Shown: positions 22,100 through 38,941 of the stretch, piece by piece
Layout: each line of letters opens with the position of its first letter
How positions within the stretch are numbered: the first letter of the stretch is position 1
Origin: an uncultured Clostridia bacterium
Lineage (GTDB): Bacteria; Bacillota; Clostridia; Lachnospirales; Anaerotignaceae
Assembly (NCBI GenBank): GCA_944384265.1
Contig: CALWSR010000007.1
Location: 1 to 64,000, forward strand
Reading direction: 5' to 3'
DNA: 64,000 bases
Translations under genes and position numbers: made by a program
Notes under the pieces: generated by a model
What the model saw: the letters and a program-made list of their open reading frames with translations, nothing else
What the model was told of the DNA's origin: nothing
Database searches by the model: none

Positions 22100-22549
22100 C
22101 TATATGGTCAAGTCATTTTCTTCTTTGTAATCAACGGCCTGCTCAAATACCTTTGATAACACAAAGCTAAATAATCCTGCTATAAAAAATATGACAATGA
22201 TAATAACCGTAGACGGCGTAATGGTATAAAACAGCCGAATGGCCGTGACAACAGCTATGGCTATGCTATACCTGCCCATTTTTTTTAAGCTTTTGACATT
22301 TTCTTTTACAAAACAATTTTGCTCCAGCACAGTACAAAACATTTTTCTCAATTCTCCAATAATCAGCACAGACAAGACCCCTGCTGCAAAAAACAATATG
22401 CACATTTCTGCATAATTTGTTTCAAATACAGAATACCATTTGCCCATATAACGAAAAATAATGGGCAGGGCAATGCATACCACACAACCACTGTAATACA
22501 TAAAATCCAGCATTATTTTCACCCATTTTTCCAATGAATTATCTTTCAT
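22100..22549 (-). CDS. DUF2975-like membrane protein
   Basis: A 150-residue protein with about four membrane segments (around 17-37, 50-70, 95-115 and 120-140) and a short cytosolic tail ending KEENDLTI. I start at MKDNSLEKWVK, with an AGGAGGGAAAGGA site just upstream; an in-frame start 12 codons earlier would lie inside the promoter. DUF2975 proteins commonly pair with a small XRE regulator, as here. Function unknown. Confidence 0.75.
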   Translation of the reverse strand: MKDNSLEKWVKIMLDFMYYSGCVVCIALPIIFRYMGKWYSVFETNYAEMCILFFAAGVLSVLIIGELRKMFCTVLEQNCFVKENVKSLKKMGRYSIAIAVVTAIRLFYTITPSTVIIIVIFFIAGLFSFVLSKVFEQAVDYKEENDLTI

Positions 22550-22573
22550 ATTCCTTTCCCTCCTGTTTTTTTT

Positions 22574-22602
22574 AATATAACACAATATTTTTCGTTTTTC
22601 AA
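22574..22602 (-). promoter_or_regulatory. Promoter of the DUF2975-XRE-DUF4173 unit
   Basis: TTGAAA (22597-22602), 17 nt, TATATT (22574-22579) on the minus strand, about 20 nt upstream of the DUF2975 start. The -35 box is part of the direct-repeat array next to it. Confidence 0.75.
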
Positions 22603-35148: not shown

Positions 35149-35697
35149 TTATTTTTTTGCAAACGGCTCTCTAAAAAGCGGACGATATACCAGCTTGCCT
35201 TTGATTCTCACACTTTCAAACAATGTAATGGCATCTACCAGCATTTCTTTTTGTTCCACAACAACATTTCTTTCCATTTGTAAAAAAGAACCGTAAGCAA
35301 CCGCTTCTCTTGCCAGTGTAATGTGGGGCCGCAGTGCTTTTTTCTCTCTTGCAAATCCCTGTCTGGACAAATTCCGCTCCAATGCTTCAAATAAACGAAA
35401 AAGCTGCTTGCTTTCTTTGACTCCGGCCCAAATAATCCCCTTTTCTCCCCTTTGAAAAAAACCGATTCTGTTTAAATATAATGGAAAAGCTTTATTTTTT
35501 TGTGCTGTTTCAAAAACCGCTTGTTTTAAATACGATATGTCATCCCTTGTGGTTTCCCCAAAAAAATGTAATGTCATATGAAAATTTTCTTTTTCTGTAA
35601 AATTTCCCTTTTTGCAGTTTTTTTGACACTGCTGTTGTATTTGTGCCAAAGCCTCTTTCATTTCCTCTGACATACCAATTCCAATAAATGTTCTCAA
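35149..35697 (-). CDS. thpR: RNA 2',3'-cyclic phosphodiesterase
   Basis: A 182-residue 2H phosphoesterase (LigT/ThpR family) that opens 2',3'-cyclic phosphates on RNA. The two catalytic motifs are visible: H40-M-T42-L in NFHMTLHFFGE and H124-I-T126-L in LRPHITLARE. MRTFIGIGMSEEMKEAL is the typical N-terminus. It stands alone, upstream of the acyl-CoA dehydrogenase. Confidence 0.93.
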   Translation of the reverse strand: MRTFIGIGMSEEMKEALAQIQQQCQKNCKKGNFTEKENFHMTLHFFGETTRDDISYLKQAVFETAQKNKAFPLYLNRIGFFQRGEKGIIWAGVKESKQLFRLFEALERNLSRQGFAREKKALRPHITLAREAVAYGSFLQMERNVVVEQKEMLVDAITLFESVRIKGKLVYRPLFREPFAKK

Positions 35698-36204
35698 ATG
35701 CTTCTTCCTTTCTGTTTTTTGATATTGTTATTTTCACATAGATTTTAAAGTAAAAAACAGTTCTTTCCATTTCTCTGTTACAATACAAAGCAATGTTTTT
35801 TTGCCTCCTTCCGCCATAAGGGTTTAGAAGCATACTCAATTTTTTTGATTACTTCTTTTCATATGACACCAATGGTATTGTTCTGTTTTAAATACCACTG
35901 TCAATCCTTTTTCCTATGCAATGAAAACACATACTGTTTTATTTGTTAAAAAAATCTCCATTGCACAAAACAGATAAAACAAACCTTCCTTATTTATACA
36001 TAACCAAGTCATATGCTTCAAAATTGCTTCGTATTTTGTTTCACATTGGCTGTGATTGCTTTGATTTTTTGTATTTTCTATACAAAATAAAATGGACAAA
36101 AAACCTTTTTCGTATTTTTCCACATTGCTTATGATTCCGCAAAACCATATAAAATACATTCGTGCTATCACCATTAGCTTTTCATAAACCAAAGGCTTTA
36201 AAAT
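35698..36204. other. Intergenic, no supported gene
   Basis: A 92-codon minus-strand frame (35914-36192) has no ribosome binding site and random-looking aromatic-rich sequence. I see no strong hairpin. Confidence 0.45.
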
Positions 36205-36681
36205 TCATGCAGCCAGTCCATTTTGGGATAAAGCTTCCCTGTCCAAATGAAATATATTCCACTTTACACCCATATCAATATCTGTGATAGCCTGCATTTT
36301 AGCAATAGGAGATTGACCGCCGCTGTTTAAAGGAGTATATATACTTTTATCAAAAAAATTGCCTTTCATAACCTCATTTGCAGTATGGGCAAAATCCCCA
36401 TTATAAGAATAATAGTCGCCATCACAACAATATGAAAGTGCTATCCATTTCCCGTCACAGTTTACTTCCAGCCACTCCTCCTCTCCATAGGGTACAAGTG
36501 ACAGATACAGATTCAATCCAGCAGGAATTTTTTTCAAAATCTTTTCAATCACTTTTTCTGTAATTTCTTCTCCTTCCTATTCATGATACGGAGGGTCAAA
36601 ATATCTAATATGCTGTAATTTTATTGCCTTTTTATCAAAATCAGAAGCTATTTCTTTTTTAGAAATGACTTTAAATTCCAT
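36205..36681 (-). pseudogene. Hypothetical gene interrupted by an in-frame UAG
   Basis: From ATG 36679-36681, with GGAG 6 nt upstream, the frame reads MEFKVISKKEIASDFDK and onward for 34 codons to TAG at 36577-36579. It then continues in the same frame for another 124 codons (EGEEITEKVIEKIL to REALSQNGLAA). Both parts have the same hydrophilic, protein-like character, so the intact product would be about 158 residues. The part beyond the stop could also be started from GTG 36550-36552 (115 residues). I do not recognise the family. A nonsense mutation is likeliest; readthrough, re-initiation (AGGAAGGAG overlaps the stop) or a sequencing error are possible. Confidence 0.65.
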
Positions 36682-36869
36682 ATTTTCTCCTTTCACACTT
36701 TCAAATTGAAATTCATTGCTTTTTTTCATTGTTTTATAGAGTATGCTTTTCTTCTTCCATAATCCCCTTAAATTTTTTAAAACCTTTTTTTGTGTCAGAT
36801 TGCTATTATTTTATCAAAATCGTCTTTTAATAAACAGCATAGGCAATATGGCTGACTATCTAACACCCA

Positions 36870-36955: not shown

Positions 36956-38941
36956 TTATTTTCCTACTACATTCATAGCTGTTTCCACTACATTTTCTAC
37001 TGTAAAACCATATTCTTGAAACAATGTATTTGCCGGAGCAGAAGCACCAAAGCCATCTATGCCAATGACAGCCCCGTCCAAACCAACATACTGATGCCAT
37101 CCAAAGGAGGAGGCTGCTTCTACGGCCAATCTTTTTCTGATTTCGTTTGGCAATATACTTTGTTTGTATTCCTCTGTCTGTTCTTCAAAAAGCTCAAAGC
37201 TAGGCATACTGATAACACGGGATTTGATGCCTTTTTCTGCCAAAACATCATATGCCTTGTATATCAGTTCCACCTCAGAGCCGCTTGCCAAAAGCAATAT
37301 GTCTGGAGTACCTTCACAATCTCTTAATATATAAGCACCCTTTAATGCCTCTTTGCCTGTGCCTTCCAGCAATGGCAAATTTTGTCTTGTCAATATCAAT
37401 GAGGTGGGAGATGTGGTTCTGCTCAATGCCGCCAGCCAGCCGGCCGCCGTTTCTCTGGTGTCACAGGGGCGGAACACGGTATAATTTGGCATACTTCGTA
37501 GTGCTGCCAAATGCTCCACAGGCTGGTGGGTTGGCCCATCCTCTCCCACACCAATGCTGTCATGGGTCATAATACTGATAACAGGCAATCCCATCAGTGC
37601 TTCCATTCTCAATCCGGCTTTCATATAATCGCTGAATACAAAAAATCCTGCAATATAAGGCCTTAATCCTCCATGAATCGCCATGGCATTTGCCATTGCT
37701 GTCATGGCAAATTCTCTGATACCAAAATGGATGTTAGAGCCTTCCGGTGTTTGGGCAGAATAATATGCTCTGTCTTTCATCACAGATTTGTTGGAAGGTG
37801 CCAAGTCAGCAGAACCTCCAAAAAGATTTGGTATCACTTTGGAAAGCTTTTGCAGCACTTGTTCAGAAGATGCTCTTGTGGCAATATCTCCTTCATACTG
37901 CCAATAATCTTCTTCCTCCAGCAAATTTACAGGCAATTCTTTGCTGTGCCAAATTTCCCATTCTTTTGCCAGCTGAGGATTTGCTTTTTTGTATGCTTCA
38001 AAAAGCTTGTTCCATTGCTCTTCTTTTTGTGCAAATGCAGACTGCAATGCTTTCATATGCTCTGCAACATCTGCAGGTACAGCAAAATCTTCTGTTTCTG
38101 TCCAGCCAAGGGCTTGCTTTGCCGCTTTCAGTTCTTCTTCTCCCAAGGGTTCTCCATGCGCTGAGGCCTTGCCTTGCTTGTTTGGAGCACCATATCCAAT
38201 GATTGTATTGATTTTAATGATAGAGGGCTTTGTGGTTTCTGCTTTTGCCAATGCAATGGCATTTTCAATGGCAGCTATGTCTGTGCCGTCTTTCACCTCT
38301 TGAGTATGCCAGCCATAGGCTTCAAAGCGTTTTAATACATCTTCTGTAAATGCAATTTGTGTATCTCCTTCAATGGTAATATTGTTAGAATCATAAAGCA
38401 GTATCAGCTTATCCAATGCCATGGTAGCTGCCAGGGAAGCCGCTTCTGCCGCCACTCCCTCCATCAAGCAGCCATCTCCGCAAAGTGCAAATGTATAATG
38501 GTCTACAATATGATATTGTTCTGTATTAAATTTTGCCGCCAAATGCTTTTCTGCCAGGGCAAAACCAACGGCATTTGCAATGCCTTGTCCCAAGGGTCCT
38601 GTGGTTATCTCCACTCCCTTTGTATGGCCATATTCCGGATGTCCCGGAGTGAGAGAATTTCTTTGACGAAATTGTTTTAAATCCTCTATTGTCAAACCAT
38701 ATCCAAACAAATGGAGTAAGGAATAAAGCAGAGCAGAGCCATGTCCTGCGGAAAGTATAAATCTGTCTCTGTCTACCCAGTCAGGATTTGCCGGGTTATG
38801 CTTCATTTGCTTTGCCCAAAGGGTATAGGCGGCAGGGGCCGCACCCAAGGGCAGTCCGGGATGTCCGCTTTTTGCCTTTTGTATGGCATCTGCGGACAGA
38901 AAACGAATTGTGTTAATAGATAATTGGTCAATATGATTCAT
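36956..38941 (-). CDS. tkt: Transketolase
   Basis: It moves two-carbon units between sugar phosphates in the non-oxidative pentose phosphate pathway, using thiamine diphosphate. The 661-residue, full-length protein has the N-terminal [18 protein letters not shown], the cofactor motif [16 protein letters not shown]...NN, ATGPLGQG-type loop [14 protein letters not shown] and a pyrimidine-binding region [19 protein letters not shown] transaldolase lies 528 nt upstream on the same strand. Confidence 0.98.

What the first reader, a model, noticed from the sequence alone, without database searches (positions are those of the whole stretch)
36205..36681. Gene of about 158 codons interrupted by one in-frame UAG at codon 35
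The frame is open and protein-like on both sides of TAG 36577-36579, starts with a good ribosome binding site, and has no frameshift. An AGGAAGGAG overlaps the stop. This could be a fresh nonsense mutation, a sequencing error, programmed readthrough, or two coupled products.
Basis: seen in the sequence. Interest (0 to 1): 0.55.

Follow-up and report, generated by a model that had tools for sequence, protein, structure and literature searches.

The report
Decayed bacterial toxin-immunity gene remnant
A gut-bacterial gene that probably once protected its owner from a rival's toxin has been broken by both an early stop codon and a frameshift; it is an ordinary dying gene, not evidence of recoding.

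Summary
The TAG at 36577-36579 (codon 35 of a 158-codon frame, minus strand) is real, but the claim of no frameshift is wrong. The eight closest homologues found are single uninterrupted proteins of 150-173 aa. In 6 of 7 aligned, the codon opposite the TAG is tyrosine. All eight end in YFxxTGxxxPxIxW. The window copy still encodes such an ending, but in another frame (36260-36198), so it carries two lesions. In a same-genus genome (Ca. Coprocola pullicola) an intact copy sits in the same place, between transketolase and a LigT/ThpR-type gene. In three other genomes of the genus those two genes adjoin with no such gene between them. A second, distant family member elsewhere in this genome is also cut by a stop. 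Release factor 1 is present; no PylS over its cut-off and no CUA-reading tRNA were found, though the tRNA set is incomplete. The intact proteins match no Pfam, NCBIfam or PADLOC model over its cut-off, but the intact relative's predicted fold matches DddI, the immunity protein of the deaminase toxin DddA (Z 12.5). Best reading: an orphan DddI-like immunity gene, probably acquired horizontally, now a pseudogene. Readthrough and two-product readings lack support.

The parts
36205..36681 (-).
36687..36693 (-). AAAGGAG, likely ribosome binding site, 5 bases before the ATG
   Evidence: consensus recalled, not tested for function
36577..36579 (-). In-frame TAG (lesion 1); Tyr codon in 6 of 7 aligned relatives, Ile (ATA) in the seventh
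36570..36578 (-). AGGAAGGAG; most likely former coding sequence before the conserved Ile-Thr, not a dedicated start signal
36252..36262 (-). Frameshift zone (lesion 2): net two-base offset relative to the intact same-genus copy
36198..36260 (-). Displaced C-terminal coding sequence, GIYFIWTGKLYPKMDWLHEF then TAA, in another frame
36956..38941 (-). Flank upstream of the gene in transcription direction: transketolase, 661 aa, intact
35149..35697 (-). Flank downstream: LigT/2'-5' RNA ligase-like protein (ThpR-type by recall), 182 aa, intact

Best explanation
The locus is a pseudogene. An ancestor in this genus carried, between the transketolase and thpR-type genes, a single gene of about 160 codons for a small alpha+beta protein of DddI-like fold, most likely an orphan immunity protein that bound and blocked a deaminase-type toxin delivered by competing bacteria. 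In the window's species the copy has a nonsense codon (TAG at codon 35) and a frameshift that throws the conserved C-terminal helix and strand out of frame. Translation would give a 34-residue peptide; even readthrough or a restart would give a protein without the conserved end. SHOWN: the TAG, the frame offset, intact homologues, the same-site intact copy in one same-genus genome, three same-genus genomes without the gene at the site, and the predicted fold. INFERRED: immunity function, a deaminase as target, horizontal arrival, and loss because the toxin threat was absent.
For: Read-through search finds homologues without a stop; further searches give 8 close intact members of 150-173 aa. 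Tyr codon opposite the TAG in 6 of 7. The family-type C-terminus lies out of frame. Same-site intact copy in G004, none in G001, G002, G003, where the thpR-type gene begins 70-76 bases after the transketolase stop. The G000/G004 DNA match (68% over 415 columns) runs about 180 bases past the gene's end, so the site content is probably shared by descent. Neighbouring transketolase and LigT genes are intact. The second, distant member in this genome (contig C62) is also cut by a stop, TGA. Model of the G004 protein, mean pLDDT 91.7, matches DddI in 6u08: Z 12.5, 117 residues, rmsd 2.5, next unrelated row Z 4.1. SUKH domains in neighbours of L013 and L016, and a SUKH-Deam_C protein 1.5 kb from the L016 member. 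Changes unique to the window copy fall more on codon positions 1 and 2 (30 of 44) than those of three relatives pooled (43 of 84), one-sided Fisher p 0.048.
Against: Constraint is not gone: the window copy departs from 4 of 26 family-invariant columns, and intact members depart from 1 of 27 to 8 of 34 when left out in turn, so decay is recent or incomplete. The Fisher result is marginal and ignores the tree. The tree does not place the window copy with the G004 copy, which groups with copies from Anaerofilum and Oscillibacter MAGs, so strict orthology is unproven. Foldseek's own best E-value for DddI is only 0.011, the PDB profile search did not find DddI by sequence, and no Imm1 profile match was found. 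Of the loci whose neighbours I scanned (L007, L013, L016), L007's neighbour matched nothing. No reads were available.
Confidence: 0.86

Rival explanations
1. Sequencing or assembly error at one or both places; the organism has an intact gene.
For: The genome is a 104-contig draft and no reads can be inspected. Codon constraint is largely preserved.
Against: Two independent errors within about 320 bases would be needed, while the flanking transketolase and LigT genes are intact. A single error would leave the gene still broken. The other member in the genome is broken too.
Confidence: 0.08
2. Two coupled products: the short peptide plus a restart downstream that makes the C-terminal piece, as was proposed for the two ORFs of the S. 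aureus immunity pseudogene esaG4 (PMC9484751, passages seen).
For: AGGAAGGAG overlaps the TAG; an in-frame ATT lies 5 bases and a GTG 17 bases downstream of it (counted by eye).
Against: None of the 8 close relatives found is split there. The purine run coincides with relatives' coding codons. GTG is too far and ATT is a rare start (recalled knowledge). The C-terminal piece would still lack the conserved end.
Confidence: 0.04
3. Programmed UAG readthrough or UAG recoding yields one protein.
For: TAG is a rare stop here: it ends 1 of 53 mechanically picked long ORFs of the window. The tRNA set found is incomplete (no Trp, His, Gln, Asn or Ile tRNA named), so a suppressor tRNA could be unassembled.
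Against: prfA present, 546.6 bits against a cut-off of 423.25. PylS profile: 3 matches, the best 36.6 bits against a cut-off of 178. No tRNA with anticodon CTA among the loci covering all 40 matches. Readthrough would still miss the conserved C-terminus. The relatives found have no stop there.
Confidence: 0.02

Closest known systems
DddI, immunity protein of the T6SS deaminase toxin DddA (PDB 6u08)
   Same: Predicted fold of the intact same-genus protein aligns over 117 residues of the 123-residue chain, Z 12.5, rmsd 2.5; small stand-alone protein. The chain is numbered 1-123 whereas papers number DddA residues in the 1300s and 1400s, so the matched chain is DddI (inference).
   Different: 9% identity; not found by profile search of PDB sequences; extra N-terminal part (the alignment starts at model residue 23); no toxin gene beside it in the window.
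Imm1 family (PF14430)
   Same: An alpha+beta immunity family that the 2012 survey lists with deaminase toxins (PMC3482391, passages). Resemblance of the GGQxP...YFxxTG...W pattern to Imm1 is recalled, not tested.
   Different: No Pfam match for the intact members scanned and none in the whole genome.
esaG4 of Staphylococcus aureus (immunity pseudogene)
   Same: A T7SS immunity gene annotated as pseudogene because a premature stop splits it into two ORFs (PMC9484751, passages).
   Different: Different immunity family, and it lies in a tandem array beside its toxin gene; the window gene stands alone and has a second lesion.
Orphan immunity genes of gut bacteria (rAID)
   Same: Immunity genes without their toxin, fast evolving, in gut bacteria (PMC12247911, abstract and outline only).
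   Different: Those are in recombinase-associated arrays of Bacteroidales; this is a single gene in a Clostridia genome between housekeeping genes.

Membership tests
Pseudogene of a known single-gene family | Intact homologues with one uninterrupted frame across the stop | tested here: met
   8 close members uninterrupted; stops inside: none for the other genomes' rows
Pseudogene of a known single-gene family | More than one disabling lesion | tested here: met
   TAG and frame offset with displaced C-terminus
Pseudogene of a known single-gene family | Neutral substitution pattern | tested here: inconclusive
   Shift towards codon positions 1 and 2, p 0.048, but position 3 still changes most
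DddI-like immunity protein | DddI fold | tested here: met
   Z 12.5 over 117 residues; Foldseek E 0.011, probability 1.00; model made from the G004 relative, not from the window copy
DddI-like immunity protein | Cognate deaminase toxin gene beside it | tested here: not met
   Flanks are transketolase and LigT; Deam_C (PF24241) in 1 of 6 genomes searched, and not in G000
DddI-like immunity protein | Binds and neutralises a deaminase | not testable with these tools
   needs a binding or rescue experiment
Imm1 (PF14430) | Match to the Pfam profile over its cut-off | tested here: not met
   no Imm1 match for the members scanned or in the own genome
UAG readthrough / pyrrolysine | PylS present | tested here: not met
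   best 36.6 bits, cut-off 178.15
UAG readthrough / pyrrolysine | CUA-reading tRNA present | tested here: inconclusive
   none among loci covering 40 tRNA matches, but tRNAs for five amino acids are also missing

The most novel reading that the evidence does not exclude
The split is functional: as proposed for esaG4, the 34-residue piece and a re-initiated C-terminal piece with a new ending are both made and together form an altered DddI-like immunity protein with changed toxin specificity.
Probability: 0.03. Interest if true: 0.5.

Novelty: new member of a known kind. Interest (0 to 1): 0.13.

Why it matters
It removes a candidate for readthrough or recoding. It also points to a small DddI-fold family in gut Clostridia that no Pfam, NCBIfam or PADLOC model recognised here, with an intact copy, a decayed copy and gene-free sites at one locus within a genus: a modest, clear case of turnover of a presumed orphan immunity gene.

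Tried and rejected
Family searches that gave nothing useful: Pfam on the read-through and on the C-terminal piece, 0 families at E up to 1; NCBIfam, only MinC at E 0.006 far below its cut-off for the read-through, and LRR/internalin models for L009's LRR part; PADLOC, nothing for 5 proteins; Pfam WVELL at E 0.1 below cut-off for L006. Scan of genome contigs with the broken protein: none confirmed; the second scan, with intact members, found 7. Viral contigs: none. PDB sequences by profile: only M-Ras at E 0.43. LXG toxins: 0 of 2 genomes, G000 and G004. Two other fold rows above Z 5 belong to 6anz (Z 8.5, hypothetical protein) and 6u08 chains; nothing was concluded from 6anz.

Rows left out: L008 (G039, E 0.007, 54 residues) was dropped as too weak; L009/L021 (domain inside a 337-aa LRR protein) and L022 (distant, long branch) are not among the 8 close members; L083 was not in the DNA alignment (it shows Tyr near that place by eye). 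Neighbours were scanned with Pfam in three member loci only (L007 one ORF, L013 one ORF, L016 six ORFs).

Considered and rejected: alternative start for a second product; frameshifted ending as a natural new C-terminus (kept only in the section on the most novel reading); TGA reading as Trp for the C62 member (TGA ends 12 of 53 long ORFs of the window).

Full report
OBSERVATION. On the minus strand, ATG at 36681 is preceded by AAAGGAG and followed by 34 sense codons, TAG at 36577-36579, and 123 more codons to TGA at 36205. With X at the TAG, the translation finds a protein of a same-genus genome at E 1.9e-32. In one search, 6 of 98 genomes have a match at E up to 0.01, including the window's own genome and one weak row (G039, E 0.007). 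So the observation of an interrupted real gene holds.

SECOND LESION. The alignment of the read-through with relatives breaks down after residue 140. The intact same-genus protein matches the window in two separate pieces in different frames: residues 1-144 and residues 148-164, the latter with 82% identity, E 7e-6. The second piece, GIYFIWTGKLYPKMDWLHEF followed by TAA, lies at 36260-36198. The DNA alignment puts a net two-base offset at about 36262-36252. The gene therefore has two independent lesions about 320 bases apart.

RELATIVES. They are 150-173 aa long and end in YFxxTGxxxPxIxW (8 of 8, read). In a DNA alignment of seven of them with the window, the codon opposite the TAG is Tyr in six and Ile in L016. 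The AGGAAGGAG that overlaps the TAG coincides with relatives' coding codons just before a conserved Ile-Thr (for example GAAGGTAATGAAATCACA in L014), so it needs no separate explanation as a start signal. The family is rare: 7 of 392 genomes sampled from the order, the own genome included, and 5 of 58 from the family.

THE SITE. In G004 the intact gene lies between the transketolase and LigT/ThpR-type genes, as in the window. In G001, G002 and G003 the thpR-type gene begins 73, 76 and 70 bases after the transketolase stop, and the best hit of the G004 protein there is E 6.2. The G000/G004 DNA similarity continues about 180 bases beyond the gene. The simplest history is one insertion before the two species split and decay in the window's species. 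Against this, the protein tree groups the G004 copy with Anaerofilum and Oscillibacter copies (97/94 and 100/99 support) and leaves the window copy unresolved, so replacement of one copy by another is possible.

STATE OF DECAY. At nucleotide sites where three relatives agree, the window copy has 18, 12 and 14 unique changes at codon positions 1, 2 and 3 (of 82, 92 and 42 sites); G004 has 6, 4 and 12 (of 70, 84 and 40), L012 8, 6 and 11 (of 72, 86 and 39), L013 9, 10 and 18 (of 73, 90 and 46). Pooled comparison: 30 of 44 against 43 of 84 at positions 1 and 2, one-sided Fisher p 0.048. This is a weak sign of relaxed constraint. The copy still keeps 22 of 26 family-invariant columns, as expected if decay is recent. 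A second, distant member in the same genome, on contig C62, is also interrupted, by TGA.

RECODING TESTS. prfA is present over its cut-off. PylS: three matches, all far below cut-off; I take them for other class II synthetases, untested. Forty tRNA matches; loci covering all of them were read by ARAGORN and none has anticodon CTA, but no Trp, His, Gln, Asn or Ile tRNA was named either, so the set is incomplete. The window itself has no tRNA gene. TAG ends 1 of 53 long ORFs in the window (mechanical selection, not a gene list).

WHAT THE INTACT PROTEIN IS. None of the members scanned has a Pfam, NCBIfam or PADLOC match over a cut-off, apart from L009, whose weak matches concern its LRR part. 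An AlphaFold2 model of the G004 protein from the 8-row alignment A4 has mean pLDDT 91.7 and pTM 0.90. Foldseek ranks 6u08 first, with E 0.011 and probability 1.00, and no match reaches E 0.001. VIA-align gives Z 12.5, rmsd 2.5, 117 aligned of a 123-residue chain, then 6anz at Z 8.5, then 4.1. 6u08 is the DddA-DddI complex; DddI blocks the DddA active site by DNA mimicry (PMC10442228, passages). Two member loci have SUKH-domain neighbours, and in L016 a SUKH protein is fused to a putative deaminase C-terminal domain; SUKH proteins are a common immunity superfamily and orphan immunity loci are well described (PMC3482391, passages; PMC12247911, abstract). So an immunity role against a deaminase-type toxin is the best guess; a shared fold does not show function. 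Part of what is lost in the window is the C-terminal helix (model residues 139-152) and last strand (161-164).

PRECEDENT AND VERDICT. An immunity gene split by a premature stop is known: esaG4 of S. aureus, described as a pseudogene encoding two small ORFs (PMC9484751, passages). The finding is thus an ordinary decayed orphan immunity gene.

Noticed in passing
L034 (contig C62 of the same genome) 1870-2172 +: A second, distant member of the family, without the usual N-terminus and cut by TGA, near ORFs that look like IS200/IS605-type transposase pieces (named by eye).
   Followed up: partly
L009 1435-2448 - (G023:C1): The same domain forms the C-terminal part of a 337-aa protein with leucine-rich repeats, like a multi-domain immunity protein.
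   Followed up: no
L016 1523-7467 +: The Acetatifactor locus is an apparent immunity island: LRR-SMI1/KNR4 protein, the family member, SUKH_5-Deam_C fusion, DUF285-DUF6911 protein.
   Followed up: partly
L007 / L017: The family member of G023 lies directly beside ORFs that look like the ATP synthase beta and epsilon subunits (by eye): again a lone copy beside housekeeping genes.
   Followed up: no
window 1-64000: TAG is a rare stop: among 53 non-overlapping ORFs of at least 120 codons, 40 end in TAA, 12 in TGA and 1 in TAG (22100-22585).
   Followed up: partly
window 35700-35900: About 200 bases upstream of the LigT gene are present here and not in the matching interval of G004 (alignment); no gene recognised.
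   Followed up: no
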